DNA of 64,000 nt from Trichostrongylus colubriformis. Lineage: Eukaryota > Nematoda > Chromadorea > Rhabditida > Trichostrongylidae. Below the pieces are notes generated by a model. That model saw nothing but the letters and a program-made list of their open reading frames with translations. It was not told the DNA's origin and made no database searches. Below, piece after piece: positions 11,962-43,103 of this stretch. How positions within the stretch are numbered: the first letter of the stretch is position 1; each line of letters begins with the position of its first letter. The stretch is taken from positions 4,030,001-4,094,000 of the forward strand of contig OZ022259.1 in NCBI GenBank assembly GCA_963978905.1, written 5' to 3'. A program made the position numbers and the translations under genes.

Positions 11962-13180
11962 ATGAAAGATAAAAAGAAAAGGTTCTGACGGTAATCAATC
12001 CGATAGTTGGGATGCCCGCGTATTATCGCTCGCTCAGGATCCTATTAGCTGGTGACTGCGATTTGACCTTTACCAGTGACTTGCGGGGAGAGCCGTAAGG
12101 AGAAATTCTGTTCTGATAAGGCGATAACAGGAAATAGTCTTCAATCGATAATCACACTTTTTACTGGGTAGCAAAAGCGATTCCGTAATAGCGACTGACG
12201 ACCTTCCTTTTTAGGAAGACCCCCACTATTAGGGGAGCAGGTATCCTGAAGTGTGTTGACCAGAGAATGGATCATATTTTCTGAAAATTTTTCTCGGCAC
12301 CCGACTTCACCCTGCTCGACACTATGTTTGACCCCCAGGGAAGCCCAATGGAGGTTTTTTCAGTCCTAACGACTTGTCGCCGAGCTCGTTGGTTCTTTTG
12401 TTTGAGCAGAAAGTGGGTGGGATTGGATTCGAATTTCCACTTTTTGTGAAAGCTCATGCCGCATGCTGTATGAATCATTATGTCCACAATGATTCCGGCG
12501 AAGTCACCTTGCCACAAGTTTTGGCGGGGAAAGGATTCGCGCCGCGTGATTTTCAGCAATAGGACACCATTAACAAAAGAACGCACGTTCGCTCACTCGC
12601 CGTCACGGTCGCATGATGTACAAACAAATGGAGGCGCGATGCCTTCAAAGGTGAATTGCACATGGAACAAATTCGTCCGAAGTTCCAAAACTGTCCCGGT
12701 GGTGGGTTTCCACCCCTCAGAAGAGTATTTTGTAAACAATAACTCAGTAAATGACAATGGGGACCACGCCATGCTCGGCGTCCGGCGGTGTATTTGCGCG
12801 AAATCTAGGCGGAGACGAACCCCATCCCTCTTCCACCAGTAAGGCTTGCACAAAAATATACGGCTTGACCATGGCTTGACCCTGACATGCTAGTTATACT
12901 AGCCCCCCCCCCCTTTACAACGACACCGCCGCTTCTATTATACGTCATCCGGAACCTCTAGAATCAAATGAAGGCCTTCAGAAAGTCAATTTTATCGCAT
13001 GACAGCTTGGCATGGATATAGTAGTTGAATGCGTATCCATCGGCCGCAATAGAGCCGTCTCTTTTCAAAAAAATCCATGGATCCCGCCTCTTTCGAAAAA
13101 AAAAATCCATGGATCCCGCCTCTCTCGAAAAAACTGATAAAGGTTTTTTTTACAAAAAAAAAGTTTTTTTTGTAATACAT
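11962..13180. other. Unannotated stretch, open frames on both strands
   Basis: Several 60-120 codon frames overlap on both strands around 12270-12860 and are largely kept in copy B. None shows a domain, start context or splice structure I can defend. 12827-12836 (CCTCTTCCAC) is the empty target site of the copy B MITE. 13060-13140 has short palindromic ATCCATGGAT repeats. Confidence 0.35.
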
Positions 13181-13193
13181 CTAGAGATAATTA

Positions 13194-13454
13194 AAAAAGA
13201 AGGAAGGATAAAGTTTTTGGCGTTAATCAATCCCTTCCTGGGATGCGTCGCACAGGTCTAATCTCATTCAGAATCGTGATGGCTGGCGAATGTGATGTGG
13301 CCGATTCAATGACTTGCGGTGGCCAGCCGATACCAATTTGCCGACCCCGGAGGGATGGAGTGCTTGGTTGGCTCGGGCGGGCGCTGGTGCAGGATTTGAT
13401 CCCCGCGCCATGAGAGTGGTGAGGGCGCCATCTGTCACTACACCACCTATGCCC
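13194..13454 (-). mobile_element. tRNA-derived SINE with 13-bp target duplication (copy A)
   Basis: The minus strand begins GGGGCATAGGTGGTGTAGTG, which fits an RNA polymerase III A box, and then has GGGATCAAATCC, close to the B-box consensus. The body ends near CTTTATCCTTCC. The element is bounded by the perfect 13-base direct repeat CTAGAGATAATTA (13181-13193 and 13455-13467), the mark of retrotransposition. A degraded relative lies at 60529-60634. I associate this sequence with hookworm genomes. Confidence 0.7.
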
Positions 13455-13467
13455 CTAGAGATAATTA

Positions 13468-14090
13468 GACCAACCGAATCTCCTTATCAGAGCAATAGAT
13501 CTTTGACTAACTATTCAGGATGGACCGTTTTTCGCGTCGCTACGGTGTCCCATCACAACGCTGCTCGAACCCACACTAGCCACGCCCACTTCAGCTCCTT
13601 ATTGCTCGTTACACCTGCTCGAGTCCACACTAGCCACGCCCACTTCAACTCGTTATTGGTCGGCTGAGCTGGAAAGGTGCGCTTAGCTCGAATTCGCGCG
13701 AATGTGGCGTGTGATGGCACACTGGAGGCGCAAATGGTGTGCAGCCTGGATAGTAACACAAATTTACTATCCGAAGCTAATATGAAAATCCATGAGCATC
13801 GTGGTATACTGTTAAATATGCTACTAAATACTCATCCAAATAAAAATGCGCTAAAACTTACAGCAATTCTATTCGAATTCGTCGACAGCAAGCATCCGAA
13901 TCACCGCAGCATTCATAGTACGAGAAGAAGTCTGACGGGGGACAGCGCCTAGAAATAGTAAATGAGTAGATGAATAAAGACAGGTTTAATAGTATAATAA
14001 TATAAATAATAATCAATAGATAATGAATACTGAGTGATTGATAATATGAAAAATAATTAATAATGAATGAGTAGATGAATAAAGGCAGGT
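13468..14090. repeat. Short tandem motifs and AT-rich repeat
   Basis: CACACTAGCCACGCCCACTTC occurs twice about 54 bases apart (13570-13655), related to a MITE in the PTB gene's last intron. From about 13960 an AT-rich repeat (GATGAATAAAGACAGG ... AATAATCAATAGATAATG) begins and continues after the inserted element at 14091. No gene supported. Confidence 0.5.
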
Positions 14091-14457
14091 TGTCGTGACT
14101 CACCGTCCGACCTCGAGTAAAGCTGCTCAAACCAAGCTGGCAGGAAGCCGCTTTGCTTACTCCCGCACTCCGCACGCATACGCCCGCTTCCCACGCGCTC
14201 ATGGGAAAGCCCGCCAAGTATGGGAGGCTCGAGAAGACCCTGTCTTCCTACGTCTCGCTCTCTCGTTACGTTACGCGCTAAGAGCGCTTCAGTCTTCGCT
14301 TCATATCGTCTTAAACAGCAGTCGCCTTCGCCATCGCCTTCGACTCACTACGCGTAGCACTATGCGAGTTAAGACCAAGCAGTGCCGTGGACCAGCAGGC
14401 ATACGCTTATATCCGTCGGAAGCACTGATGCACTCACCCCGCGGACGAGTCACGACA
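14091..14457. mobile_element. 367-bp foldback element with CAGGT target duplication (copy A)
   Basis: TGTCGTGACTC at the left is inverted as GAGTCACGACA at the right, and CAGGT flanks both sides (14086-14090, 14458-14462). It sits inside the AT-rich repeat. The 123-codon frame across it is shared by copy B but is explained by the element and has no recognisable domain. Confidence 0.65.
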
Positions 14458-14583
14458 CAGGTTTAATAGTATAATAATATAAATAATAATCAATAGATAA
14501 TGAACAATGAGTGATTGATAATATGAAAAATAATTAACAACGTGAGTAATAACCACTTTAGAACAAAATTGTGGGCTATCCTA

Positions 14584-15409
14584 CAGGGTGCGCCAAAATT
14601 ATGGCGAATGGACATGCGCGCACATTTTGAACAACTATCCAAAGATGCTGCATTTTTCTCTGCTTCTGTCATTTCTATAGTGTTGATGTCTTCATACCTA
14701 ACATAGGTGACCGGGAAAATATGTCATGGTTGAGCGATTCCGCTATTGTTCTGCAAACACTGGACTTCATCGGCAAGGATTTTCGGCACGCGAAATTCGT
14801 GAGCGTGTTGGTATACATCTGTGGGTCATCTACCGATCCATCAAATGCTACAAGGAGCTAGGAACCGAGAGCGACTGATTTGGACGGGGAAGGCGTGTAA
14901 CTGTGACCACGACCACCAATTTGAGGAAGGAACGCGAGAGGATTTGCAGAGAGCCGTCGCGCTCGGTTGACTGGACGTTCCAGCAGGACTGAGCTCCGGT
15001 TCACAGAGCACGTGTGGTCCAAATCTGGTGCAAGACAAATTTCCCGACCTTACCCGCTTCGAGGAGTGGCCAGCTAATTCACCAGATTGAAATCCTATAG
15101 ATTACAGCGTCTGGTCCGTTCTATAGGCAAAGGACTGCGCAAAACCGCACCGCTCTGTGGAATCACTGAAGAAACTCTACATAAAGCGTGGGACGAGATT
15201 AGCGCGCCGTACTTGCGTGCCACGGTCGATGCCCGCATGATGCGTCTCAAGGCCTGTGTTAATGCCAACGGAGGGATTTTCGAAATTCACCGGTTGTGTA
15301 TGATTAATAAGTGAACAGTAAAGGCTGCTATGTCTTAGATTTCTTAAGATTGTGATCACTCGTTCTAGGCGACTCAATTATCTTTTCGCTGAAATTTTGG
15401 CGCACCCTG
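14584..15409 (+). pseudogene. Defective Tc1/mariner (DD37D) transposon (copy A)
   Basis: Inverted ends CAGGGTGCGCCAAAATT / AATTTTGGCGCACCCTG flank the element and a TA dinucleotide borders each side. Frames encode a helix-turn-helix-like start (near 14760-14870) and a transposase core with WTFQQD, then WPANSPD and NPID. Between the two catalytic aspartates I count 37 residues, which fits the DD37D (maT-like) group. Stops (including TGA in QQD-A in this copy), a frameshift before the second block and a large internal deletion make it dead and non-autonomous. Confidence 0.85.
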
Positions 15410-15676
15410 TATTGGTGATAGGAGGGGGGGGGGGAAGGATGGAGCATTTTATCGAGTATTTTGTAATGCTGACATGTCGACATGTCTGACTTGTTAAACG
15501 ATGAACACTGAAATGTTTTCATAACTCACGTGTAAGGAACACGTATTACATGTTGCATCTCACAGTCCCCCCTATCCCGAGATTAGGCATAAATCCACAC
15601 ACCCATGAAGACCCCCTTTACATAGAAAGATAGTGGATACAAAGAATACCTAGCATAGGGATGACATTGGATGATA

Positions 15677-15912
15677 AGGACAGGATTTCGCAACGCGGCA
15701 TGCGACGCTAAAGCTAGCGAGCTGCGGCCCATGCGGCGTTACGAAATGCGAGCTAAGAGCGTCGTATGTAGAGCTGAGTATAATAGCGATTACCGTGTCC
15801 TACGCTCTAAATTGAGGAACAAGACAGGGTCATAGCTTCAGAATGCAACGACATACAGTGCCCGTCGCTCTTATGCATCGCGCCGATGCCGCGTCGCAAA
15901 ATTTTGTCCTAA
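15677..15912. mobile_element. MITE with imperfect inverted ends (copy A)
   Basis: Left AGGACAGGATTTCGCAACGC and right GCGTCGCAAAATTTTGTCCT are inverted. The interior has further palindromes (GCGGCATGCGACGC). The copy B counterpart is 35937-36172. Confidence 0.6.
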
Positions 15913-17117
15913 CGATAGACACCAGAATGTACTTTGCTCTGCTGCGTTCATTATTGAACATTTCAATCACGTCCATCAGAGACACTCTGCGAAAGAATCG
16001 CATATCCCCCTTCCCCATATTAGGATAGAACCCATGAGTGCTCTGGGAGTGAAATTTGAAAAATTAGTTTCTTATGCTCCGAAATGCCTCAGGATGCCTG
16101 CTATCCTGTTATCATATTATTGGATAATATTTCCTATCTAAAGCTAAAAGATGGAAGTCAGGGGGATGCTCCACCATATTATTATCGGAAAGCTTCATAT
16201 TATGCTTCTTCACTTACTTTACCACACGCACATTTCAGTGCGAACCTGTGTACTTACAGTATTCTAATGAGGGGGAGAGGGGACATTTTATAAGAAAGTT
16301 GAAAACTTTGCATGAATGACGTGTTAAACGTCGGGTAGTAACATGACTTTACATAACTTACGCGGCCAAGACGTGCCCCCTAGATGTTGTGTACGTGTAT
16401 GATCCCGTACATTCACAGAAGGCGCATGCGGCGTTCCATCAACTCCGGAGATGGGCGGGACTTGTGGCTAGGGTGGAACTTCAATTGATGCGTCGTTTTG
16501 TATCTGTGTCATTGTGAAATAATTCCTACATGTACTCAGTATGAATCCATGCCTATCGAATGGTGTCACCAAGTGAAAATACCCAAGGAACCTGCATAAT
16601 GCAACGTTTCCAGAAAAAAATTGCTGAAACTAATTCAACGATCGATTTTCCAATAAAAGGAAAATACTTCTCTTGCCATTCACTCAAAATCCCTCTTAGA
16701 GAAATCAATTCGAAATTCCTGACATTTCCTAACGACAAGGTTTTTCGAAAGCCTCGATTTTGGCGCCGTTAAGTGGACATGTTCATGTTCCCTCAGCGAG
16801 AAGTGAATTGCAGTGCAACGTGTTTTTATGGCGCTTAGAAATGGAGCCGGATCCAGGGCCTGCGAAGTCCATTAACTTCGCAGCTTCTTTGATCGAAAGG
16901 CAATGCAGTTATGATTATGTACGTATGGTGGCCCAGTGGTGTGTTCTTTCTAGTTTCGTCTGAAGTGCCAAGAAGCCGGTTCTTTAAAGTAGTTAGTCGA
17001 ATGATGCGCTGTTGTCGCTGATTGTTAATCGATGATCTATAAGTTGGAGGAAACAGAATCAAGTCAATTGGAAATGAAATGTACCTTAATTAAGTGGAAG
17101 ATTTCTTGTAATGGAAG
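15913..17117. other. Unannotated stretch of copy A
   Basis: The 70-codon frame at 16560-16772 differs from copy B by an indel at its 5' part, so coding conservation is not supported. A G-rich motif shared with other loci lies at 16262-16340. Confidence 0.35.
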
Positions 17118-17281
17118 CAGTGTTCCGAGTTCGCGATTCAGGCGATACCCCCCACTATTCAGGCGTATCACGCTCACCTAATCGATACGTTTCCTTCCGC
17201 CTGAATCGCGCAAATCCCACAATCGCCTGAATCACTTGTCATCTCATCATCGCCTAAATCGCGAACTCTGAACAATACCTG
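17118..17281. mobile_element. MITE with GTTCGCGATTCAGGCGAT ends (copy A)
   Basis: GAGTTCGCGATTCAGGCGAT at the left pairs with ATCGCCTAAATCGCGAACTC at the right. The interior repeats CGCCTGAATCGCG. Copy B counterpart 37369-37532. Confidence 0.65.
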
Positions 17282-18369
17282 AGCAAAATTGGACCGGTGA
17301 CGTGGGCGGAGCGATCTGTGGCGGGAAGCAATTGACCAATGAGAATAGCCGCGCGCTCCTAGCACGGTCCTTATTGGTCTGCCGCTCTAAAATCAGCTCG
17401 TAACATAGATCGTGCAAAAATCAAAATATGCAATGTAAGCCTTGAACATATAATTTAAAATATTATAGAATAAGTATCGATGACATCACGCTCTACAATA
17501 ATAGCGATGACGTGCAGGTTTCCCATGTATACGTGCAGGGCTGGTTGGATGTCAGAAAGTTCGACTAAAGCTCCAAAGCTGTTCATTTATTTAAATGAAC
17601 CTACCCAGGAAAAGGAGTGAAATATTGAGGAAAAGAGAATTTGAAGATGGTGGAATTCAATGGTTTTTAGAAAGGACCAAATCCGAAATTTTTGAAAAAT
17701 TTTTGTTCTCGTCCTTAGCTATGAAAAATTGCGACAGGTAAATGTGGTGGTGCGAAAAGGTTGTTCCCCGTTGGTGGATGAAAAGAACCCCGCAAAATTT
17801 AAAACGCAGAAAGACGACAGTACGTAGTAGTACGACAGACGACAGGCTTGCAAGCAACTTAACCTCAGGGCCCCGCGGGAGGGGCATCGGGGGACCTAAA
17901 ATTCTTTAATTAGGGTTCAATAAACTTTATTTCGTTATACAACCCAAGCAACACAAGTCCACGGTCTCTTCATCTCGCACAGGATTCAAAAAAGCCTAGA
18001 GATAACAGAAATACGCAGCTGGCACGGGGTAAATCTATACCGCTGTAGAATATGGATGGTGGTGATCTGGGTACAACGGGAGTCAAAGATTTCTAGACAG
18101 CATGGGGGGGGGGGGTAACGGCAGAGGTCAGCAATGGTCCCGGGTTGGATGATAAACGGTTCCCGTTCAGCTGACCCGATTATGTAAGAAAATGTGATTG
18201 AATTGGTATGATCAATACAAAAATCACGTGATGAAATACTTAGTAATACTACGTAATCGGTTATAATTACCGATACTGTAGAGGTTACGTAGCCGTTAGA
18301 GGATGAGAGGTTGCGTTAATCCCCGTTGAGGGAGTGAGGAGGAGGAGGGAGGGGGGTCGTAGTGAAGAG
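17282..18369. other. Unannotated stretch of copy A
   Basis: No gene supported. A G homopolymer lies near 18103-18114. Confidence 0.4.
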
Positions 18370-18571
18370 GGTGTGTGCAGATATGACAGCAAATCGCTTC
18401 GCCGCGCGTTTCACTGGCGGCGCCACTAGTAAGACTTGCGAATCGATTGCTCTTGTTAGCCCGGCAGAGGGTGGCTGCGTCACATCTGCGCTTCCACCCA
18501 TACCACACTGCCTCGTTTCGCGCCGCTCGCCGCGGGCGGCCACGCTATTCGCTGTCATATCTGCACACACC
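18370..18571. mobile_element. MULE-type MITE (copy A)
   Basis: Perfect inverted ends GGTGTGTGCAGATATGACAG / CTGTCATATCTGCACACACC are flanked by CGTAGTGAAG on both sides, a 9-10 bp target duplication like that of Mutator-like elements. The core (CGAATCGATTGC..., CCACACTGCCTCG) is shared with 22798-22985, 43195-43457 and 32881-33120, whose ends differ. Copy B counterpart 38615-38819. Confidence 0.7.
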
Positions 18572-20262
18572 CGTAGTGAAGCTGCCATTTGCATCAGCTG
18601 TACGACGACAGGATTTGAAGCTTCGACAAGAAATTTCTGATTCCCTGGCATGCATGTAGGTAGATGTTGTCGTCTAATCATCTTCTCAATCGACAGTTTA
18701 AGATGAAATGTTGCGTTGATTTTTTTAAAAGTATTAAATTCCTAATGATCATAAATGAGTATTGGTTTTTGTAACAAATTCTGAATAATGAAGACTCTGA
18801 GTATTCGTTTTTAACTTTGTGTGCTTTTAATTCAAGAACGAAGGAATGATCAATGGTGATTTTTTTTTGGGGGGGGGGAATCGTGTAACAGAAGTCAGTT
18901 TAGTTTCCGTTCGCTCGCGGGTCCTTAGGCGGGAAACAAACAATTATGAATGTCCTCTCTCTGGACTCTTCAACAAGAAAGATGGAAAAACAGTTTCCGT
19001 CAATGTGTATATTTACATAAAACTATTTGAAAAGTAAATAAATAAAAATATAGAAGTAAATAAGAAAAATAAGTATAATGCATAAATAAGTTTTGACTTG
19101 TTATATTCATAATTAATTGAAAACTTCGCAGACTTAAAAACTATGCTTAGTTATTTAATGTTTCTATGATTTGTACAATCAAATGATTCAAGATTTATCA
19201 AATTTTATCGCCAAAACACTTTGACGATTGGTCCTCACACTCCCAGACCTTGTAACCCCAGTTCCAAGTTCTCAGGTTAAGTGTATGGGTAGTGTGCTAT
19301 AAAAAGGTATTATTATATTCCCCCAGCAACACCTAAGGAACTCCCAAATGGGAAAAATTGATAAAAAGGAAAAAAGAGAATGAAAAGAGTGCCGTTGTTT
19401 TGGGTGCATTTGTGCTATACGGTAGTTATTGCAAAACATGATGTTTTCTTCCAACAATAACCCCCCCCCGTACCCGAAAATTTCTAGGAATGGCCACAAA
19501 CGTGGCCTTGAAAACACTTCGGAATCACTGACTTTGGTGCGGGTCTCGGATTGTCGAGATACCAATTCCTATAGCAAACGACATCATCCGGGTAAGAATC
19601 TCCCAGATAGGCGAGTATATTGAGTAAAGTGAAAGTGAATGCATGCATTTGAGACGCGATTTTGTGAAATCGGTATTCAGGCCTTGTGTCTTGTTCAAAC
19701 ACAAACGCAATAGCCGCCGCCCACGATGACGACCGTCAACGGACGGGCTGCACGCGTAAGCAACCAACAACGACGAAGGTGAAAATGCATCGTTCAGAAT
19801 AGCCATCGCACCACATCGCAGTATGATTCACCACCCGACGCACAGGATTGCACGGAGGAACGGTTCGCGATGATGTGTCAGCTTAGTATGGAGAGCTCGA
19901 TAGTATTCCCGAGCCTAGGAGGCTTGATATTATGACAACATGGTTAAGGGTATGGGTATTGTGCAAAAATGTGTTTTTTTTTCAAAAAATAAATGCAAAA
20001 TTAAGGTAAGAAAGAATAAGTAAAATGCAGGGATTCCGAAAGACCGTGATCCACTATGTCACAACAAAGTACGCAAATGCGGGCTGTAGATTCAATTCCA
20101 ACGCGACAACGAGAAGACAATGAATATGTACGGTGTTTAGCGGCACTAGACTGCGCCGACACGGCATTTTCCATGGGTTTGGGTAATACAGCTTGTATCT
20201 TCCCGGAGACAAGCCCCATAGTTAATCCCTAGTTGGGATCGTGCAACAACCCAAGCTCATAG
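18572..20262. other. Unannotated stretch with a divergence hotspot
   Basis: 19280-19440 differs from copy B (39535-39690) much more than its surroundings and begins just after GCTATAAAAAGG. The neighbouring minus-strand frames at 19484-19806 are the same in both copies but have no recognisable domain. No gene is called. Confidence 0.35.
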
Positions 20263-20416
20263 GCCGCCACCAGACTTCGCAATTTACGCGATTTTGTGGC
20301 GTCGCACTTTTGCACGTGATACTGTGACCTTGAGATCTTGCACTGCCGAAAATTCGGGTGCAGAAGCTGCATACACCGCAAGATCGGAAAATCGCAAAAT
20401 TGGTACGACTTCACGC
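20263..20416. mobile_element. Truncated MITE, GCGATTTTGTGG family (copy A)
   Basis: Left end CAGACTTCGCAATTTACGCG is intact. The right inverted end present in copy B (TTGCGAAATGTGACGGCGGC) has been removed by a deletion of about 45 bp. Confidence 0.6.
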
Positions 20417-20420
20417 CTTT

Positions 20421-21898
20421 ACAACTAAGACAATTCGCTACTTTAGACTCCCTCACGAGTGATGTAGTATTAGCTTTAACGAATGTTCATGGATATTGAA
20501 GTGCTTCCATCGAAGATAATTTTGAAAAATACAAAAAATAAATAAAATTGGTATGAGAGCGAATGGCATCAATGATTTACTGTTCGCTCACTTCAGATAT
20601 GCTGCAAAATACGTATTATCAAAAAAAAGCTCTGAAGGAGATGGTGCTGCGACAGGTGGCGCGCAGTCACAGTCTTATCGTACGCGGATCATATCCCACA
20701 TCATTGCCCGTCCAGGCCAACCAAGTCTTCTATCCCTCGGGGCTAGGCAAATTGGTATCAAATTCATCTGCGTGGCGTAAAAGCGTTGACTTGTACATCG
20801 ACTGGTCTTCGTAAGCCTTTATGTAGCAAAATCGCATTCACCTGCAACCACGATTCCAAATAGAACTAGAATGCGCGGCACATCCAAAGGGATTGATTGA
20901 CGCCAAAAATGGAATTTTTTCATTTAGCTGAAAGAAACCCAGCTTAGGGAGGCCAATGAGGATGTAATTGTTATGAAGATGTGACATAATATTCAGTATC
21001 CCGCTATGAGTGTGTATCTGATGGAGCGTGTAAAAAACGGCGGAAAGTTTCAAAAAAATGAATCGAAGTCAAATAATTTTGGGGGTGGTGAATGAGCTAC
21101 TCAGCAAAAGGGTCAGAGAAAATGTGCATTTCTATCCGTTCTTTTTTTTGTCATAATTGATTGTAGTTAAATCTAGAAGGCTTTTCTTGTTCATCAGGGA
21201 TTGTGCAACAACGATAAATTCCTTAGGTGTAATCACGGACCGCACCTATCTCACAAACCTCGCCCCAACTGATACCGTTGTCACAGGGTCGGCTGCAGGG
21301 TATGGTGGTGATGTAGCATGAAGCATTAGGTGTAGATAGATACCTTTGGGTTGCTGTCGCCTACAACCGCATTGGGAGTGTAATCGCAGGGCTGTGAGAG
21401 CGGAAGGCCACCTGAGGGGGGGGGGGACATTTTACAGTATGCTGAACATCTGTGCATCACTGACGTGTTAATCTTGTTAAACAGTAAACATTGTCAAGCC
21501 TATCGCATTTACACGCTCCCAGATTCATCACCTATAGAATCATGTCCACAATGCGTGCTACATAAATTGCCCCACCCCCCCCCCCCCCCCCCCGCCTAGG
21601 ATGGCTCCAAATGAAATGGTTGGCGCAATATTGAGGCAAACGCGAAGCGCAGCATTCCCTACTGTGAAAAACCCACCAAACACGTATAAAAAAATTTATG
21701 CCCAGTGGTGCTCCGAATGTGATGGTACCAATTTGACAAGAGTTCGAATGCATGGCGCATTCCAGGTAGATGTCGGCAAACGTAGCGAACAATTGAGACG
21801 TGCACCTCCTACTGACTCGCTCGGGAAGGCCGTGCATCCCATCACAATTAAACTGAATGAAAAGTGATGTGGATAACGCTGTTGGTGATAAGGAACCG
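20421..21898. other. Upstream region of the copy A secreted-protein gene
   Basis: Contains a long C homopolymer at about 21572-21593 and an 88-codon ATG frame at 21601-21867. That frame is also open in copy B with three base differences (two silent, one replacement), so it could be a small gene, but it has no recognisable family and lies opposite a longer frame. A G-run motif shared by several loci is at 21410-21495. Confidence 0.35.
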
Positions 21899-21906
21899 TA
21901 TAAAAG
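21899..21906 (+). promoter_or_regulatory. TATA box of the copy A secreted-protein gene
   Basis: TATAAAAG sits 42 bases before the ATG and is identical in copy B at 42199-42206. The ATG is preceded by TTTTATCAACAG, a good trans-splice acceptor ending one base before the start codon. Confidence 0.55.
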
Positions 21907-21947
21907 GGATTCAGCTGCGGTGGGTTTCATTTGCTTTTATCAACAGA

Positions 21948-22089
21948 ATGCAAATGCTACTTCTTTGGTGCATCCTCGTCCCGGCTCATGCTTATAGCCG
22001 CAACCAGAGTCCATCTACGGTGCCTACGCCTGAACCTACTCATGCACCTGCTCCTGCACCTGCTCCTGCACCTGCTCCTGCACCTGCTA
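21948..22089 (+). CDS. Exon 1, paralog A: signal peptide and Ala-Pro repeat
   Basis: Starts at the ATG after CAACAG and ends phase 1 before GTATGT. The non-repeat part is identical to copy B; only the number of 12-bp Ala-Pro repeat units differs (B has one more). Confidence 0.8.
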
Positions 22090-22698
22090 GTATGTTTTCT
22101 TTTTTCTTGTTCCCAAGGAGGTTATGATTATAAGTCGTATTTTCGGTATTGCAGGTGATCCACTGGACGACATATGCAAGCTAGTATTCGGATACGACAT
22201 CAAGCAGTATGCGGCTCTGGCTCCACAGTTTCCAGGCTTTGTAAGAACACGCGAGTATGATAATTTCCAGGAGAAATATTTTAAGAGTTTGGGGACTGAG
22301 AAGAAACGCATGTATGAAACAGTAAGTTCGAAAGGTTTCAAGTGCCGCTAATAATGAAGAGCTTCCTTGCGTGTTCTCTTTAAGACGGTTGCTTTTTGAA
22401 TGTGCTTCTATGTATGATGAAACGAAAACAGGCGTAAGGGTGAAAGCGTTTTGCTTCAGGTTATTTATGCTTTTTGGGACATTACACGGTCTCGCACGAC
22501 TAGGGAAGAAGCAAGGGCAGCGTAGGGATCCCTTTCTGTGTTTCTTTTGAAGAAACACCTTTCCTTAACCCACATTCTTTTTATTTCAGGATACTTGCAC
22601 ACTGGTTTAATGAGCCAGAGTATAGACGACGTGAATTGAAAGCAGAACACGGCGCCTTCGTCATCGTCGACGATATGGCCTGGGGCCGCCGAAGATAG
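21948..22698 (+). CDS. Predicted secreted protein, hypervariable paralog A (4 exons, 159 aa)
   Basis: I assembled this gene from exons 21948-22089, 22155-22321, 22460-22521 and 22590-22698. All introns are GT..AG (65, 138 and 68 nt) and the phases join without a stop to TAG. Residues 1-15 (MQMLLLWCILVPAHA) form a signal peptide. Residues 33-47 are an Ala-Pro repeat encoded by a 12-bp tandem repeat. The mature part is acidic/basic and probably helical, with two cysteines at most, and ends VDDMAWGRRR. I do not recognise the family. A TATA box and a trans-splice-like acceptor lie just upstream and AATAAA lies just downstream. The copy B paralog has the same signal peptide, near-identical introns and strongly different exons 2-4. 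Compared with B, exon 2 here is fused across the site of a B intron. A readthrough of exon 2 into intron 2 would end after VSSKGFKCR and is an alternative. Confidence 0.8.
22155..22321 (+). CDS. Exon 2, paralog A (fused relative to B)
   Basis: Follows TATTGCAG and ends in ETGTAAGT context at GAAACA|GTAAGT, phase 0. The GTAAGA hexamer that is a splice donor in copy B lies inside this exon and is translated as Val-Arg. Confidence 0.75.
22460..22521 (+). CDS. Exon 3, paralog A (62 nt)
   Basis: Bounded by TTGCTTCAG and GTAGGG. Starts phase 0 and ends phase 2. Encodes VIYAFWDITRSRTTREEAR and joins exon 4 in frame. Differs from copy B at 24 of 62 bases without an indel. Confidence 0.75.
22590..22698 (+). 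CDS. Exon 4, paralog A, with stop codon
   Basis: Follows TTTATTTCAG. The first half is variable between copies and the second half is nearly identical, ending IVDDMAWGRRR and TAG. Confidence 0.75.
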
Positions 22699-22706
22699 AT
22701 CATTCA

Positions 22707-22712
22707 AATAAA
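22707..22712 (+). promoter_or_regulatory. Polyadenylation signal AATAAA
   Basis: AATAAA begins nine bases after the stop codon of the paralog A gene; a very short 3' UTR of this kind is common in nematodes. The same arrangement is present in copy B. Confidence 0.6.
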
Positions 22713-22797
22713 GCTCGTTTCTGTAATCTGTGAATGGTACTTAGCTGACTCCGAATGACTTTAGACAATAGTCAGAGTTGGCGATCGTGTATATAGA

Positions 22798-22985
22798 GGT
22801 GTGTGCCCTTATGACGGGAAATCGCCTGCGCGGCGTCGCACTCGCGGCGCCATCAGTACGACTTACCGAATCGATTGCCCTTGGGAGCCCGGCAGAGCGT
22901 GGCTGCGTTACCTCTGCACTTCCACCCATGCCACACTGCCTCCCCCACCCATGCCACACTGCCTCGCTTGAAGGCTGTCATGTCC
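22798..22985. mobile_element. MITE truncated at its right end (copy A)
   Basis: The left end GGTGTGTGCCCTTATGACGG and core match the complete copy at 43195-43457. The right inverted end is absent because a deletion of about 340 bp joins GCTGTCATG to GTGTAGTGTTGAG. Confidence 0.65.
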
Positions 22986-23519
22986 TGAGGTGTAGTGTTG
23001 AGATGGGCGTCAATAAGCGGTCCGCGGTGGACCGTTGATCGCTCTTTTTGGTTGGAGCCAGCACTGGCCACGCTCGGGGCTTTCTTTGCCGGCACCGCGT
23101 GCGACTTTGAACTCCTCATGATTCGGTATTCTCACCACTCTCATGTCACATGAACATCATGGCCCGTCTATCAGTACTATTCAATGCTACTTGGATAATT
23201 CTATCCCTGTATTATATGCCCACTAACCTTGTGTGTCGGTTTGTGTGTCAATCTGTGGGTCAATCCGTTCGCAACTGAGTGATTGTGACTAGGGCATAAT
23301 AGAGCGAAATAACCGCTCTAATTAGGTAGAAACGGATGGGTGGTGGAGTATCATAGTGATAGCACCTCCTACTTATACAAACACATATTTCGTACTCTCG
23401 CCATCATTCTGCGGTGTGCAGATATCGCAGTAGGTAACAGCACACTGGAAAAGCATGCAGGTATTTTGGGTTGTCGGAGGATCGCTGCTTCTGAACTAGA
23501 CCGATCCCAGAGTCGGTAA
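22986..23519. other. Unannotated stretch
   Basis: No gene. 23195-23280 has TATTATATGCCC followed by TGTGTGTCGGTTTGTGTGTC, which resembles the start of the Helitron-like elements, but no matching end was found. Confidence 0.35.
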
Positions 23520-23591
23520 GTCTTGGACGGGACTCGTACCCGCACTCCATGCTCTCCGGGCATATGTGCTAATCCATTACACTGCCAAGAC
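23520..23591 (-). tRNA. tRNA-derived sequence, probably a pseudogene (copy A)
   Basis: The 72 bases fold as a complete cloverleaf: acceptor GTCTTGG/CCAAGAC, D stem GTGT/GCAC, anticodon stem TATGC/GCATG with loop CCGGAGA, and T arm GCGGG-TACGAGT-CCCGT. The nominal anticodon is GGA, but there is no U at position 33 and no long variable arm as tRNA-Ser would need. I therefore read it as a tRNA relic or SINE head. Confidence 0.5.
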
Positions 23592-23709
23592 CCCTTTCAC
23601 ACTAACTCAGCTTCTGAATAATATGTTTACCATAGCTCTTATCAGCACTCACACGTATAACGTGTTGAGCCGGTTGGCCAGTATCGGCATCGAACCGTGA
23701 AGCTGAAAA

Positions 23710-24277
23710 CTTTTCAGTAGATATCGATTTTTAGTTTTCGATAGCTGCTGATATTCGCCGTAGCCCGCGATGCGAAAGTTGTTATTAGGATACCTAGTTA
23801 TACTATTCAGAAACTGAGTTATGGTGAAAGGGCTCTTGGTAGTGTTATGGATTAGCACGGGTGGGGGCCAAGTGGTCGAAATTCTGCGCGACGGCCCACG
23901 GCGAGCGGCGCGGCGGGTACGAGTCATTTGCAATTCCGCTCAAGACGCAATGGGCTGGTACCGCGAGGGACCTTCAAAGATAGGCAAATTCCCGGAGCTT
24001 CCAACTTGCAATCTTCAAAGGTCCCTCGCGGTACCAGCTCATGGCGTCTTAAGCGGAATTCCAAACGACTCGTACTGGCAGCGCCGCGAGTGCAACGCCG
24101 CATACGGAAATTCGACCATTTGAAACCCACCCGGATTAGCACATGTGCCCGAAAAGCACGAAGTGCGAGTTCGAGTCCCGTCCGAGACCAAAGCTTTTGC
24201 TCATAACTCAGTATCCTAATAACAACTTTCGCATCGCGCGTTGCGGCGAAAATCAGCAGCAATCAAAAATTAAAAAA
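23710..24277 (+). mobile_element. tRNA-derived SINE with an inverted partner (copy A)
   Basis: A tRNA-like head starts near 23830 (CTCTTGGTAGTG), resumes at 24143 (ATGTGCCCGAAAAGCAC, then GAGTTCGAGTCCCGT), and is followed by a tail AACAACTTTCGCATCGCG...CAAAAATTAAAA. The tail occurs inverted at 23728-23800, making the locus a large palindrome. The tRNA head is split by the MITE at 23859-24132. A related locus is at 59681-59890. Confidence 0.55.
23859..24132. mobile_element. 274-bp MULE-type MITE inside the tRNA-like head (copy A)
   Basis: Ends GGGTGGG.. / ..CCCACCC are inverted and the 10-base duplication GGATTAGCAC flanks it (23849-23858, 24133-24142). The interior is a near-perfect hairpin: GGTACCGCGAGGGACCTT at about 23957 pairs with AGGTCCCTCGCGGTACC at about 24018. 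Present at the same site in copy B, so it predates the duplication. Confidence 0.8.
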
Positions 24278-25196
24278 CAGTGGAGCGATTGCAACCTTTT
24301 CAGCAAATCATGGTCGGCTTGGACAGCTACTGAAATGTGCGTAGATGGCTGGAAGCACATAGTAGGCCTTACCATAAAGCGGTACACTATGCAATTTCTA
24401 TGACCATTGGGTGGCAGTAATAGATGCGTGAATAAGTGTGAATCAATAAAGATACACGCTATCCTTGCAAAGCCACATTGTTGAGTAACTTCACTAACAA
24501 AGAGCCTCATTTTTCGGCGCCTATAGGGGTAATGTGGGGAGTGAGAATTCCCAAAAAGGGCCACCCAAATGAAAACCAGGGGGAGGGGGTGCTATCGCAA
24601 TGGGGGGGGCACCCCACCATGGACATTATTTTTACCTAAGCCTGAAGGGAGAAAGAAACCCCTCCTTTCTCCATCAAGGTTTGGACAGAAGTATAACACG
24701 CCTGAATGTGCAGATTAATCCTTCAAGGATCTCTCCAGGATGCTGAGATAAGCGAGTTTTTACAAGATGCCCCCCCCCCCCCGTAAATGCGATAGCACTA
24801 CTAGGGGTTTGGACTACGAAAAAACTCCACTACTGTAAACCGAAGAATATCATACGGAATTCGTGATAAAAGGAACCAAAATAAATAACCTTGATAAATA
24901 ATCAAAAACAACAAAAGACAGCAATAGTTCTCTAAATTAAAGCACTGCTACTGAAGACTGTTGAGATGGTGAAAATGAAGAAAATCAATCTTTATTATGC
25001 ATCGCACTTTGTAAAATTACATTTGGCACTGATATCTCATAGAAATTATGTGTAATATGGAGTAAACAATGAAAGAAAAATATTCGTATATCAATCAATT
25101 GATCAATCAATAAATCGATATTCCGGTTCGGTACAACAACGAGAAAATCGGACAAAATAAGGCAGTGATATGATAACTCTATCAATACGTATCTAA
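24278..25196. other. Unannotated stretch
   Basis: No gene. Contains G and C homopolymers (24602-24608, 24771-24782). Confidence 0.4.
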
Positions 25197-25269
25197 TACA
25201 CAAGGCACACATACACACACAAACATACACATCCACACACACGCACACACATACACACATACACACATG
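25197..25269. repeat. CA-rich microsatellite (copy A)
   Basis: Imperfect ACACAC/ATACAC repeat. Open minus-strand frames rich in Cys/Val come from it. Copy B counterpart 45953-46022. Confidence 0.85.
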
Positions 25270-25976
25270 TAACCCGATGGTTTCTCAGCTGTTGCTGCTG
25301 GCGGATGGGCTCGTTCCCTTCCAAATACAGAGTTATCCATACAGTTGGGCCTCTCTTTAGAAGGAGTGGTCCCCAGAGACATTGTGGGAGGAGCGGTAGA
25401 GAAATGTCATGAGCTTAGTAGACAGGAGTTCGGCCATTACCACCGTGCTGTTTGATTTTCATATTCTCAAACGCCTCATAGTCGACTGGTCGTGTGTCCG
25501 GCCGGGAGACCTGAAATCCCACATATGTTAGATTGAGAAGCTTTCGAAAATTGGGAATACGCCGGAAACTGGTAAAAGATAACAAAAAAACAATGTTTAA
25601 AGCCTTCAAGGCCACTTAATTTTAACCAGTTTAGATAAAAACGACAAAGCATACATGATATTTTCAGTCCCAGCTGGACATTTTGCAACCGATCGCCGGA
25701 TCACCAGAGATCAGGAACACCCTTCACAAATAAGGATCGGGGGTAATAAAAACTATAACAAAGAGGGATTTTGTGGACCCGAACATATACTGCTGAATCA
25801 CTTTCTTTTCTACCAGCAGCACTATCAGCAATGCGCTCCGCGACCGCTCGCATAATTACCTGATATTGAGAACAATCTGCTTCCAGCAAAACAACGAACA
25901 AATGCAACTTTTGCTATTAGATATTTATATACATCTTAGTACATACAACTTCCATAGTCTGTGGCTTATTATCCTA

Positions 25977-27742
25977 CCAGTTGAGCTATCGCACAGTACT
26001 GCGCGAATAACACAGGAGAGCTATGTCTAAATTAGCACTGTAATAAAGTAAATATGCACGGTCTCACCGTAATCAACTCATTGCTCTGCTATATAAGTGC
26101 CTCAATTGCGAGTTTTCAGATGGTTGGGGAGGTATTTTGCGCGGACAAGAGGCTTAGCGATGGGAAAACGTTTAACGCCTGTATTGGCAACAGATTTCAT
26201 GCTTGAAATGGAAGCGCCTATGCTAGAACCGAACCCTATGCTTTATTGACGATACATCAATGGTGTGTTTGACCAAAAATTCGTATCTCGCGTCGTAGCA
26301 AAGCTGGAACTCTGAATTTTACAAGTGATATAGGGGGTGCCAAGGGAACCCCAGCGGTGGTGGACCGAAAGTGATAGCAGCTGATACACGCTGATAAGGA
26401 GCCTTGAAAGGCGAATGTCACCAAAGTCGTTTCGCCTTTCGGGTTGATCCCAGAGCGCTGATACCCACAGGTGTTTAGCAGGATGGGCCAGGGACATTAA
26501 TGGTGGGTGACACGCATTGATAACGGTTGATAAGATTCGATAAGGAGCGTAAAAAGGGTAGAGTCGTCGGATCCGTCTCGCTTTTCGCATTGATCCTAGA
26601 GCGCTCATACTCACGGGACTTTTGAGAAATGGGACGGGACATTGATGGTGGGTGAGCCAGCTTGATAACGGTTGATAAGATTTGATAAGGAGCATGAGAA
26701 GGCAAGTGTCGTCAAATACGATCCGCTTTTCGCATTGATCCTGGAGCGCTCACACTCACGGGTCTTTTCTGAAGTGGGACGGAGACATTGATGGTGGGTG
26801 ATTCAAATTGATAATGGTTGATAAGATTCGATAAGGAGCGTGAGAAGGGAAACGTCACCAAGGCCAGTTCACTTTTGCGGCTAACAGTGGAATGTTCAAA
26901 TTCGCAGATATTGTAGGGTACGGGGACCTCAATGGTATTGTAGGGTGCAGGGGCCTCATTGTAACTGATAACGGCTTACAGTGGCTGATAAGAACCGTTA
27001 GAAATTGGATGGGATGAATCTTTTACATCGCTTGCTACTACTATACGACCACTTTCAAAAGCGTCTGACGCTAAGTGTCATTGGGTGAACATATTTTGTT
27101 TGTTCTGATATCACTAGCCGATGTATCGACCGCTGAATTGCCTAGCGTTCCAAAAAAATGGTGCATTTCTCTTGATACTGCGATCTACATTGATAATCAT
27201 GATACAACCTATATTTGTGATAGCAGAGCAAGCGCTTCACTCGAAATCATTTTCCAATGGGGTACTGGCAACAACACTGGGTATCGACCGCTAGACCATG
27301 TAAATTCCAAATAGTGAAGCATGTTTACGAAAGCGATAAACATCGATAAGCGGGATATGGATTGGCCATCACTGTGTAAGAATCAGATGCTCAGCAAGTG
27401 AACAATTCAATACCAATCGATGCAATCGAATTCAAAACTATCGATGTCTAAACTATCCAAACTCCCAATGGTGACCTAAACCAGTTGGCTCGCGCACACT
27501 ACTGCGCGCGATTCGTGTCGATGACATGCAAAACGGGATCTGTGCAAAGCGACTGAAGTACAATAACACCCAAATGCTTTCTTATCACGCCATCTTCTCT
27601 GCTTTTATCCAAATAAATAGCTCAGCTAAAAGCGGAGGAAAGGAAATTTCCACTCAACTCCATCAACTGTGGTGTGCCGATCAAACCCGTTTTGCACAAC
27701 GTCGCCATGAATAGGGCGCAGTAGTGTGCGCCCGCCAGCTGG
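25977..27742. mobile_element. Helitron-like element, longer first member (copy B)
   Basis: Corresponds to 7367-8897, but the left 350 bases differ. Here host sequence TTATCCTA is followed by CCAGTTGAGCTATCGCAC, an inverted 3' terminus with hairpin, instead of the 5'-type start seen in copy A. It then runs into the shared 146-bp repeats and ends GCCAGCTGG at 27742, directly abutting the next element. Confidence 0.55.
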
Positions 27743-29399
27743 TCACTATATATAATTCGCTTAGTATGTCTGTCTGTGTGTGTGTGTGTCTGTCCGTCTG
27801 TCACGAAATTCATATCTCACCTCGCAGTAAAGCTGGGACCATGAATTTTACAAGTGATCTAGGGGGTGCCAAGGGAACCCCAGCGGTGGTGGACCGAAAG
27901 TGATAGCAGCTGATACACGCTGATAAGGAGCCATGAAAGGCGAATGTCACCAAAGTCGTTTCGACTTTCGCGTTGATGCAAGAGCGCTGGCACTCACAGA
28001 TGTTTAGCAGGAGGGGCCACGGACATTAATGGTGGGTGACTCGCATTGATGACGGTTGATAAGATATGATAAGGAGCGTGAAATGGCTAGAGTCGTCGAA
28101 TCCGTTTTGCTTTTCGCGTTGGTCCTAGAGCGCTGACACTTAAAGGTTCTATGCGGGATGGGGCAGAAACATTAATAGCGGGTGATACAACTTGATAACG
28201 GTTGATAAGATACGATAAGGAGCGTGAAATGGCTAGAGTCGTCGAATCCGTTTCGCTTTTCGCATTGGTCCTAGAGCGCTGACACTCAAAGGTGTTTAAC
28301 AGGGTGGACCAGGGACATTTATGGTGGGCGATCCGAATTGATAACTGTTGGTAAGATACGATAAGGAGCGCGAACTGGCTAGAGTCGTTGAATCCGTTTC
28401 GCTTTTCGCATTGATCCTGGAGCGCTAACTCATAAGTGTTTTACAGGGTGGGCCAGGGACATTAATAGTGGGTGGTCCAAACTGATAATGGTTGATAAGC
28501 TTCGATTAGGAGCATTGTCACCAAGTCCGGTTCGCTTTCACGGCTAACAGTGGAATGTTCACATTCGCAGGTATTGTAGGGTACGGGGTTCTCAATGGTA
28601 CTATGAGGTACAGGAGCCTCAGTGAAATTGATAACGGCTTACAGTGACTGATAAGAACTGTTAGGAATTGGATGGGATGAAGACCTTCACATCGCTTGCT
28701 ACTACTATACGACCGCTTTAGCAAAAGCGTCTGATGCCATTGGGTGAACATTTTTTCTTTATGATCTGATACCACTGGCTGATGCATCGACCGCTGAATT
28801 GTCTAGCACTCCAAAAAATGGTGCATTCCTCTTGATACTGCGATCTAGATCGATAATCATGATACAACCTATATTTGTGATAGCAAAGCAAGCGATTTGC
28901 TCGCAATCATTTTCTATTGGCGGCAACACTGGGTATCCACCGCTAGACTATGCAAAATCCCAAATAGTGAAGCATGTTTATGAAAACGATAAACATCGAT
29001 GAGTGAGGATATGGCTCTACCATCAATGTGTAGGAGTTAGATGCTCAGCAAGTGAGCAATTTGTTACCAATCGATGCAATCGAATAAAAACTATCTATCT
29101 CTAAGCTATCCAAACTCCCAATGATGACATAAACCAGTTGGCTGGCGCACACTACTGCGCGCGATCCATGTCGATGACGTGCAAGAGGGTTCAATGCAAA
29201 GCGACCAAAGTGCATGAACACGGAAATGCTTCTTTTATAACGCCATCATCATTGCGTTTTTCCAATGCAAAATCTCAACTGAAAGCAGAGGAAGGGAAAT
29301 TTCCACTCAATTAGATACACAACTGTGATCGGGCCGATCTAACCCATTTTGCACAACGTCGCCATGAATAGCGCGCAGTGGAGTGCGCCAGCCAACTGG
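27743..29399 (+). mobile_element. Helitron-like element, second member (copy B)
   Basis: Starts TCACTATATATAATTCGC and ends AACTGG followed by T. Has four 146-bp units (landmarks near 27974, 28120, 28265, 28408) against three in copy A, accounting for its extra length. Confidence 0.6.
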
Positions 29400-29533
29400 T
29401 CTAATGATAATGAGAATATAATCATGAGCAATTCTTCCATTGAACTGTAAAAAATACTTGAAAGGCAAGTGAATGAAGCAGATCAATCGATATGCTATTG
29501 CAGATGAGCACATATATAGCATTAGCAGAAATA

Positions 29534-30550
29534 TTGGGTCATCCATAAGTAGTGTCGTTTTTTTTCAAGCAAAAATTTTTGCTACAAGTCACAAATTTTT
29601 GCAGCATATCATATATCATTCGTAAGAAAATTCTCTGCTCTACAAAATGGCATACTTGGTTTTCGATTACGTTAGAAAGGCGCCGACATTCAGGCCGGCG
29701 AAGAGGTAGGTCCAGCAGACGAAAATTGGCCAAACCGGCATATTTTGCTTGAGCAAAACTAACCAACCATGTGTTGCGTACTCAGCCCAGACCTCTCCTG
29801 TAAGTTCCACCAGTCGGCTGCTTAAAAAGTCACGTCGCTCTTTTTCCACATTTAGTTTTTCCGCCACAACTCGGTGATTTTAGACAATTGTTTCAAACAA
29901 AGGCAAGAAAATTTTCTCAACCAATCAGTTGAAAGAGTGGTGAAATGTTGAGAACAGGTGGCGCCTAGAAACAGGGAAATACCACTGACCGGATTCCTTA
30001 AGTTTCTCATGGAAAAATAAATTGTGAAAAATGTCAACTGGACCCCTATCACATGGTATTAAAACTCAATTTGAATCGCAGCCAAAACAAACTAGAAAGA
30101 TGATTTCGATAGAGCAGAAAAAGTCCTTCGAAGTGGTTCATATGCAACTCTAATCAAGAAGTTTGAAAGAAAAAATTTCATTTTGAATAAATGTGGGTGC
30201 TTTCGAAAAAAAGATTTTAGAAAAATAACGACACGACTTCTTGATCAACTAAATACTGGAAATTGTAGAAGAGGTCAGGGCTAAGTACGCGACACATCAG
30301 TGGCTGATTTTACTGAAGTGGAATATAGTGTTTAAACTGATTGCCGGTTTGGTCAATTTTTTTCGGCTGGACCTACCTCTTCGCCAGCCTAAATGTCGGC
30401 CCCGTTCTAACAAACTCGAAAATTAAACATGTCATTCTGTAGAGCAGGAGAACCTCTTCCAAATGGTATATGACATGCTGCGGAAACTTGTAATTTCATA
30501 AGAAAAATTTACGCTCGAAAAAAAACGACATTACTTATGGAATGACCCAA
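29534..30550. mobile_element. Mariner-type long-inverted-repeat element, copy B only
   Basis: Ends TTGGGTCATCCATAAGTAGT and its inverse flank the element, with TA on both sides (29532-29533, 30551-30552); copy A has a single TA at the empty site (10539-10540). The inverted similarity extends far inward (for example GGCGAAGAGGTAGGTCCAGC at both sides in opposite orientation), leaving little unique centre. No intact transposase. It inserted after the segmental duplication, or was lost cleanly from A. Confidence 0.85.
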
Positions 30551-31409
30551 TAGTAGAAACATGGAGTACTGAAAAGTATGAGGGGACTTTACAATGGACA
30601 CTACATGGCTAGAATTCCACCAAAACAAGTATTCGATAATATAGATTGGACGGAAATGCTATGATCACAGTTTATCGTCAACGGCATGGAGGTCAAAGTG
30701 TTGACGGTCCAAACCTTTGAGAATACGATTCCTCCTGTTCATGCCCAGAATACGACCCCCTTCGAAAAATTCAACCAGTGCTTGACTCTAACCATATGCA
30801 TGGTAAAATCAGAAAAAGCGTAGACCGTAGTACCTACGAGTTCGGGTCCCTCGTGCACTTTCCACGGCCCTCGGTGATCAAACCACGGGATTGGGTTGGG
30901 AGGGATTCACATATTCTACGAGAAAGTTGAGAATCCAGCCGCCTTGAAGGCGAATTTTTCGAGCTTCAGTCAGACACTGGGATACCTATGCCATATGGGT
31001 ACCAAGTTTCATGGCAGTATAATTTGAGAAATCGCATTCCGCAGTGGTAAGCGGTGTTCTCGTCTTTGTAAGTCCGTCGGTTTTGAAAGATGGGCTACAT
31101 CAACAACGAGACTGATAAAGTCTTTAGAAGCCAGGCTATAAATCAGTAACCATGCTCATAAGTTATTGAGCTAACCACACGGTTTCACGGCGGAATGGAG
31201 CAGTAAATAAAACAATTTTCGTATAATCAGTCTTCAGTAAAAATAATGGCATTCCCGTTCATCTCGGCTCAGCTGTGGTCCATCACCGGCGGGTTGTTTA
31301 CGTTGATGGAAAATCGCCATAATTGTACAGCAGCACAGTACAGCAACCAATACTGTCAACGGCACGAAGATGAAAATTCTGGAAATTCCTTGGTTGTTGA
31401 AATTGGAAT
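30551..31409. other. Copy B counterpart of 10541-11397
   Basis: Near-identical to copy A; no gene recognised. Confidence 0.4.
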
Positions 31410-32004
31410 TCTCTACTATATGACGTTCTGTCTGTCCGTTCGTCCCTCTCTGTCTGTCACGAAATTAAGCATAATATGAAAAACAATCTATGGAGAAGGG
31501 AGCAAGTTCGGAATGGGTGGGACATGCGGCAAGAGGTAAGGACCACACATGAACTATGCTCCGCCCATAGTAGGCGGAGCGTGCGCTGGAATGTTGCGTT
31601 TCAAACCGAAAATTGTTAATTTGGTACTAATGTTTATTTATTTGTTTGTTTATGATGATAATATGATCCAAACGTGGGGAAAAGATGGACTAATGTACGA
31701 GATGAGTTTCCGAAACTCATGAAGGCGGCCTGGACAAAGTGGGCGGAGCGCACCCCGAGTGGGCAGTTCGTACAACTAAAATCCACAATTCGATTGCAAC
31801 GCAGTCTTGAAACCAGAGAAAAATTCGATAGAAATGATCACCGAGAAAGCCATTCTGAACATACTTGAACGAACGGGACCCGCCCAAAATGGGCGGGACG
31901 TGATGTGGTAATTGGTACTGAGTAAAGTTTATAGAAAAAAGGCAGTTACGATCGACTAACTGGCCCTTGAAGTTACGCGCGCAGTAGTGTGCGGTAGCCC
32001 AATT
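31410..32004 (+). mobile_element. Helitron-like element with 3' hairpin (copy B)
   Basis: Starts TCTCTACTATATGACG. The 3' part has GCGCGCAGTAGTGTGCGG (31979-31994), the family's terminal hairpin, which copy A lacks. It contains a single unit of the motif expanded into a 268-bp array at 50.6 kb. Confidence 0.6.
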
Positions 32005-34714: not shown

Positions 34715-34840
34715 CAGGTTTAATAGTATAATAATATAAATAATAATCAATAGATAATGAACAATGAGTGATTGATAATATGAAAAATAATTAACAATGT
34801 GAGTAATAACCACTTTAGAACAAAATTGTGGGCTATCCTA

Positions 34841-43095: not shown

Positions 43096-43103
43096 ATCAT
43101 TCA

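What the first reader, a model, noticed from the sequence alone, without database searches (positions are those of the whole stretch)
21948..22698. Hypervariable exons inside conserved introns in a duplicated secreted-protein gene
Seen: paralogs A (21948-22698) and B (42248-43095) have an identical signal-peptide sequence, and their introns differ at 0/65, 5/138 and 2/68 bases. Exon 3 differs at 24/62 bases with no indel, and only about 6 of 20 residues are shared. Exon 4 differs at 14/109, mostly in its first half. Exons diverging roughly ten times more than introns reverses the usual pattern. Known: fast-evolving secreted families (venom peptides, parasite effectors, some immune proteins) show conserved signal peptides with hypervariable mature parts. 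Inferred: diversifying selection, or shuffling of exon cassettes from other family members, acts on the mature protein, plausibly in host or microbe interaction. The family is unknown to me.
Basis: partly seen in the sequence, partly recalled or inferred. Interest (0 to 1): 0.9.

Follow-up and report, generated by a model that had tools for sequence, protein, structure and literature searches.

The report
Hypervariable exons in conserved gene frames
In a sheep gut worm, most likely Trichostrongylus colubriformis, two neighbouring copies of a gene predicted to make a small secreted protein have nearly identical introns and signal peptides but very different protein-coding exons, which likely reflects strong selection for new versions of the protein, perhaps for dealing with its host.

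Summary
A and B lie in a tandem duplication whose copies differ at 210/12000 bases outside the gene and 7/271 in shared introns, but at 55/456 aligned coding bases and 24/62 in the most divergent exon. In the last three exons all 36 changed codons change the amino acid; likelihood gives dN 0.36, dS 0.04, dN/dS 9 to 14.

The pair belongs to an unnamed family with matches at 39 loci, mostly on another chromosome, found through promoter and introns rather than exons; introns beat exons in identity in 150 of 153 gene pairs. Two other young pairs repeat the pattern, the most extreme with 15 of 14,021 noncoding but 16 of 465 coding differences. Other close pairs show no excess.

Public T. colubriformis proteins confirm several gene models. 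No donor for the A or B exons was found, so selection on point changes explains A/B better than cassette shuffling. The predicted fold is all-helical and weakly resembles nematode lipid-binding FAR proteins. Hessian fly salivary genes are the closest precedent.

The parts
7007..46384 (.). tandem segmental duplication (7007-25625 and 25614-46384) that carries A and B
   Evidence: self-comparison, long pieces at 95-97% identity
21800..21947 (+). upstream region of A with TGATAA (21886-21891) and TATAAAAG (21899-21906)
   Evidence: aligned with other loci; TATAAA below a GATA/GAT in 28 of 39 loci
21948..22089 (+). A exon 1: predicted signal peptide and Pro/Ala-rich linker
   Evidence: 0 of 142 aligned bases differ from B
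22155..22321 (+). A exons 2 and 3 fused (no intron between them)
   Evidence: open model; alignment with B
22460..22521 (+). A exon 4, most divergent from B
   Evidence: 24/62
22590..22698 (+). A exon 5 with stop; AATAAA at 22707-22712
   Evidence: 14/109; sequence
42100..42247 (+). upstream region of B with TGATAA (42186-42191) and TATAAAAG (42199-42206)
42248..42401 (+). B exon 1: predicted signal peptide and Pro/Ala-rich linker, one repeat unit longer than A
42467..42570 (+). B exon 2
   Evidence: open model
42571..42631 (+). B intron 2, present in 25 of 26 open models and absent from A
42632..42718 (+). B exon 3
   Evidence: 11/77 aligned bases differ from A
42857..42918 (+). B exon 4
   Evidence: 24/62
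42987..43095 (+). B exon 5 with stop; AATAAA at 43104-43109
   Evidence: 14/109; sequence

Best explanation
A and B are tandem copies of a gene predicted to encode a small secreted protein, in a family with matches at 39 loci whose promoters and introns are conserved while the mature-protein exons have likely been driven apart by diversifying selection on point substitutions after duplication. Shown: the inverted conservation, the open frames, and the near absence of synonymous change in A/B and two other young pairs. Inferred: secretion (signal peptide only), expression (no transcripts seen; the GATA plus TATA promoter suggests the gut), and that the selecting force is the host or gut microbes. 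In A/B the introns carry the ordinary clock of the duplication; a conserved hydrophobic core, predicted helical, would keep the protein folded while other residues change. Recombination near introns also builds mosaics (L047), but that is probably not what made A and B differ.
For: A/B exons 3-5: 36 nonsynonymous, 0 synonymous-only codons; 1 of 5000 neutral simulations as low; dN 0.361, dS 0.040, dS consistent with intron 0.026, dN=dS rejected p=0.0004. Two further pairs, L006/L007 (coding 16/465, noncoding 15/14021) and L036/L040 (33/469, 107/6604), exon 1 spared in all three. Pooled 3 of 89 changed codons synonymous-only, 22.8 expected, lowest of 3000 simulations 9. Family-wide introns ahead of exons in 150 of 153 pairs. 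No donor found. Public proteins confirm models.
Against: Of 12 close pairs only A/B, L006/L007 and L036/L040 show a large excess; two have no coding differences, two have more synonymous than nonsynonymous changes, L042/L050 and L021/L032 show no excess. dN>dS passes the 5% likelihood test in 4 of 18 pairs, L006/L007 falling short. The three pooled pairs were chosen. Over exons 2-5 of A/B dS is 0.092, 3.5 times the intron value. The speed in L006/L007 is hard to reach by one-by-one fixation. No expression data; A and B could be two haplotypes placed in tandem by the assembler.
Confidence: 0.72

Rival explanations
1. Exon-confined segment exchange or very short gene conversion from other family members, or from alleles absent from this assembly, replaced pieces of the mature exons, as proposed for three-finger toxins.
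For: L006/L007: differences sit in short blocks with a 21-bp indel while introns are 0/252; L047 is a mosaic; about half of the changed A/B codons in exons 2-5 (23 of 45) have more than one changed base.
Against: No donor for A or B found; synonymous sites unchanged in A/B exons 3-5, codon positions 24/25/8.
Confidence: 0.14
2. Old divergence: the exons are ancient (balanced alleles or old paralogs) and recombination or gene conversion homogenised introns and flanks, as suggested for Hessian fly genes and the MHC.
For: Distant pairs have dS 3.7-4.9 times the intron divergence.
Against: dS of A/B exons 3-5 is 0.04 and values of 0.2 or more fit worse (lnL -542.1 against -538.9); sequence outside the gene is as similar as the introns over 12 kb.
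Confidence: 0.07
3. Relaxed constraint or a local mutation hotspot in pseudogene-like copies.
For: Exon divergence is high, and 8 of 34 aligned loci gave no open model, so decay happens.
Against: Drift or mutation alone would leave many synonymous changes: 3 of 89 found, 22.8 expected; frames and hydrophobic core positions are kept.
Confidence: 0.03
4. Assembly artefact: haplotypes placed in tandem or chimeric copies.
For: A and B units are directly adjacent; no reads were available.
Against: Errors would not favour amino-acid changes in exons nor keep frames open; three separate pairs show it. Uncollapsed haplotypes would turn the finding into an allelic one, not remove it.
Confidence: 0.04

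Closest known systems
Hessian fly small secreted salivary gland protein (SSSGP) gene families (PMC2955719; parts 1-3 of 5 read)
   Same: Signal peptide, promoter and intron conserved, mature coding region highly diversified, clustered copies, dN/dS up to 18.8 in one pair.
   Different: Insect salivary genes; authors invoke concerted homogenisation of noncoding parts. Here a nematode, loci on several chromosomes, four introns, and in A/B the whole 12-kb flank is as similar as the introns, so no gene-confined homogenisation is needed for that pair.
Viperid three-finger toxin genes with ASSET segment switching (PMC2474615; passages)
   Same: Introns conserved between paralogs, exon segments very different.
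   Different: Authors doubt point mutation because intermediates are missing; in A/B the synonymous sites and codon positions point to point substitutions. The protein is cysteine-poor and helical by prediction.
Conotoxin gene superfamilies (PMC3862624; passages)
   Same: Introns conserved within a superfamily while mature peptides diversify.
   Different: Introns of kilobases, cysteine frameworks, venom; here introns of about 60-140 bp in most models (one of 268 bp) and 0-1 cysteine.
TGM family of Heligmosomoides polygyrus (PMC10516467; passages)
   Same: Secreted multi-exon family of a gut nematode shaped by exon modularity.
   Different: CCP-domain cytokine mimics with conserved cysteines; no conserved-intron, hypervariable-exon pattern in the passages seen.
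Nematode fatty acid and retinol binding (FAR) proteins

Membership tests
Kind: secreted multigene family with conserved noncoding frame and hypervariable mature exons (SSSGP-like) | introns and promoter more similar than mature coding exons across the family | tested here: met
   150 of 153 pairs, introns 0.71-0.79, upstream 0.79, exons 2-5 0.59-0.63; the 45 bases after the stop only 0.63
Kind: secreted multigene family with conserved noncoding frame and hypervariable mature exons (SSSGP-like) | positive selection on the mature region | tested here: met
   met for A/B and the pooled three pairs; 4 of 18 pairs pass the likelihood test
Kind: secreted multigene family with conserved noncoding frame and hypervariable mature exons (SSSGP-like) | protein secreted at the host interface | not testable with these tools
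   signal peptide seen by eye in models; no expression or secretome data
SSSGP genes proper (Hessian fly) | sequence homology to SSSGP proteins | not tested
   no SSSGP sequence was fetched
ASSET-type segment switching | exon segments replaced by distinct sequence, with segments recurring among paralogs | tested here: inconclusive
   no donor for A/B and no synonymous change in exons 3-5; L006/L007 blocks remain compatible; L047 is a front/rear mosaic
FAR proteins (PF05823, accession recalled) | Pfam model match | tested here: not met
   absent from scans of 2, 7 and 13 proteins, partly the same ones
FAR proteins (PF05823, accession recalled) | FAR fold | tested here: inconclusive
FAR proteins (PF05823, accession recalled) | binds fatty acids or retinol | not testable with these tools
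   needs recombinant protein
Secreted clade V proteins (SCVP, recalled from hookworm genome work) | match to a Pfam model of that name, if one is held | tested here: inconclusive
   no such model among the hits; that the library holds one is recalled, not checked

The most novel reading that the evidence does not exclude
A secreted family on a FAR-like helical scaffold diversifies by an exon-confined process so fast that copies 0.1% apart over 14 kb already differ at 3.4 to 4.7% of coding bases, almost all amino-acid changing; this would go beyond ordinary positive selection to a mutational or templating mechanism that spares introns and is filtered by selection, in effect a germline diversification system of a parasite.
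Probability: 0.12. Interest if true: 0.9.

Novelty: new variant of a known kind. Interest (0 to 1): 0.66.

Why it matters
It brings out a large uncharacterised family in a sheep parasite in which introns and promoters, not exons, identify the members, so that protein homology searches miss most of it. It offers dated duplicate pairs that bear on a question left open for Hessian fly and snake venom genes: in A/B the synonymous sites and the flanking 12 kb are as young as the introns, so the coding exons alone run fast. The conserved promoter and introns give a practical way to count such families in other strongylids and to test whether the proteins are secreted and seen by the host.

Tried and rejected
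Pfam scans of A, B, 7 further members and the 13 sequences of alignment A2 (partly the same proteins) gave only chance-level hits. Sequence searches of solved structures gave nothing credible. The single-sequence protein search with B returned 27 weak hits, probably owed to its Pro/Ala linker. Rfam found two tRNA matches where ARAGORN, set for bacterial code, found none. The AlphaFold model of P0031 was too poor to use (pLDDT 49). Donors for A and B exons were sought and not found. Relaxed constraint and hypermutation alone were rejected by the lack of synonymous change. The L004/L005 comparison was spoiled by a rearrangement and not used. My first translation of A and B started one base late; frames were corrected. 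Rows dropped: 8 of 34 aligned loci had no open model (L003, L004, L005, L034, L046, L047, L048, L049); models of L029, L035, L051, L053 looked unreliable and were left out; one search used 18 of 26 models (five exons with a 62-bp exon 4, L053 out, two near-identical copies out; A is out because it lacks an intron). No paper listed or 91 was seen to describe this family; only listings, abstract starts and the passages cited were read. In the fold search no other family stood out.

Full report
OBSERVATION. The window is bases 4,030,001-4,094,000 of contig C6 of a 331-Mb, 52-contig genome. It holds a tandem segmental duplication, 7007-25625 and 25614-46384. Gene A (21948-22698) and gene B (42248-43095) are corresponding copies. 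In the 12.8-kb alignment the gene's three bins of 250 bp hold 11.2%, 12.0% and 6.4% differences while the other 48 usable bins average 1.8%; two of those are also high, 19319 (7.6%, with a C-run) and 13069 (6.1%, low-complexity). Coding differs at 55/456 aligned bases, introns at 7/271, sequence outside the gene at 210/12000.

ANATOMY. B has five exons: signal peptide plus Pro/Ala-rich linker, then four exons of the mature protein (104, 87, 62 and 109 bp), with introns of 65, 61, 138 and 68 bp. A lacks the 61-bp intron; its exons 2 and 3 are fused with the frame open. The other 25 open models have that intron, so A most simply lost it by a deletion; the direction is inferred. The stop codon is followed after 8 bases by AATAAA. 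Upstream lie TGATAA and TATAAAAG; TATAAA below a GATA or GAT was found in 28 of 39 loci, TGATA in 25 of those 28. TGATAA sites are bound by gut GATA factors in nematodes (recalled), so gut expression is a prediction.

FAMILY. A whole-genome DNA search with B gave 81 matches (40 of 65 candidates scored, so a lower bound), which fall into 39 loci by my grouping, some perhaps fragments: A, B, 33 on C3 (mostly 53.7-58.5 Mb), two on C5, one more on C6, one on C1. The pieces matched in distant members are mostly upstream region, introns and the start of the 3' flank. A further short intron match came from a search with A. In an alignment of 34 loci the commonest base per column averages 0.75-0.82 in introns and 0.80-0.86 upstream, but 0.56-0.71 in exons 2-5; the first 65 bases after the coding end have 0.79, the next 100 only 0.56. 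Of these 34 loci, 26 gave an open spliced model. For 18 of the 26, the 153 pairs have median identity 0.79 upstream, 0.71-0.79 in introns, 0.59-0.63 in exons 2-5 and 0.63 in the 45 bases after the stop; shuffled sequence gives 0.56-0.60 for the exons; introns are ahead in 150 of 153. The five remaining loci (C1, C5, C6 and C3 53.67 Mb) align with B through promoter, signal peptide and first intron, judged by eye.

SPECIES AND EXTERNAL CHECK. Profile searches found seven public proteins named as Trichostrongylus colubriformis hypothetical proteins. Several match my models: L028 156/158 identical end to end, L042 146/151, L052 148/153, L033 142/151 with one splice difference, L045 over 105 residues only, and a shorter protein for L029; the seventh, P0034, matches L052 only partly. 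This supports the exon-intron models and makes the genome that species or a close relative. No counterpart of A or B was returned. T. colubriformis is a trichostrongylid nematode and a sheep parasite (abstract start of PMC12370191).

WHY THE EXONS DIFFER. In exons 3-5 of A/B, 57 of 255 bases differ in 36 codons, all amino-acid changing; random mutation gives on average 8.6 synonymous-only codons, and 1 of 5000 simulations gave none. Differences fall 24, 25 and 8 on codon positions 1, 2 and 3, and 45 conserved degenerate codons show none. Maximum likelihood gives dN 0.361 and dS 0.040; dS equal to the intron value (0.026) fits, dN=dS is rejected (p=0.0004), and dS of 0.2 or more is disfavoured. 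Over exons 2-5, with a doubtful exon 2 alignment, dS is 0.092 and one synonymous-only codon appears. At A/B-different residues A agrees with L028 at 9 and B at 12, so both copies have probably changed. An old or imported exon should bring synonymous differences; selection for change in young duplicates need not.

REPLICATES AND COUNTER-EXAMPLES. L006/L007 lie in a duplication with 31 mismatches in 14,486 aligned bases, 15 of them in the one 500-bp bin that holds most of the gene's variable exons: coding 16/465, introns 0/252, outside 15/13769. The coding count depends on alignment: 21 in a global alignment of the 3-kb loci, 22 in the codon alignment, where codon positions are 8/7/7. L036/L040: coding 33/469, introns 5/452, outside 102/6152. 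Exon 1 is spared in all three pairs (0/142, 0/139, 1/124). Pooled over exons 2-5, 3 of 89 changed codons are synonymous-only against 22.8 expected; these three pairs were chosen. Of the 12 close pairs there, two have no coding differences, two have 2 nonsynonymous and 3 synonymous changes, and L042/L050 and L021/L032 show no excess. Of 18 pairs tested by likelihood, 4 pass dN>dS at 5%. The process thus appears in bursts in some copies. L028 differs from its public counterpart at only 2 of 158 residues.

OTHER MECHANISMS. L047 joins an L035-like upstream, exon 1 and intron 1 (0.91, 0.97, 0.93) to an L041-like rear (0.85-0.95), so recombination near introns shuffles the family. Whether family introns are merely neutral or also constrained is open: moderately diverged pairs have dS 1.2-1.8 times intron divergence, distant ones 3.7-4.9 times, the latter on poor alignments.

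COMPARISON. The pattern itself is known: Hessian fly SSSGP genes, three-finger toxins and conotoxins. New here, as far as the searches told, are the host group, the cysteine-poor helical protein, the four-intron frame spread over several chromosomes, and dated pairs in which flanks, introns and, in A/B, synonymous sites agree on a young age while the coding exons do not.

Noticed in passing
window 50626-52341: Tandem array of 6.4 copies of a 268-bp unit, 94% matches; repeated open frames of about 100 aa run through it.
   Followed up: no
window 7593-10408 and 26428-29401: Arrays of a 145-146-bp unit inside larger 1.5-kb repeats, present in both copies of the duplication.
   Followed up: no
window 23519-23591 and 44275-44347, minus strand: A tRNA-like match in both copies by Rfam; ARAGORN found none.
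   Followed up: partly
window 48469-49152, minus strand: 227-codon open frame rich in Pro and His, probably an exon of another gene.
   Followed up: no
L021, L032, L037 (C3 56.62 and 56.85 Mb): A second set of family exons lies directly behind the first and the open frame runs into it, as if a two-domain protein could be made.
   Followed up: partly
L048 (C3 58.07 Mb): The family promoter stands in front of sequence that does not align with the family gene, perhaps a fragment or a promoter captured by another gene.
   Followed up: no
window 32903-33093 and 43223-43436: Inverted match of 74% identity just behind gene B, probably a dispersed repeat.
   Followed up: no
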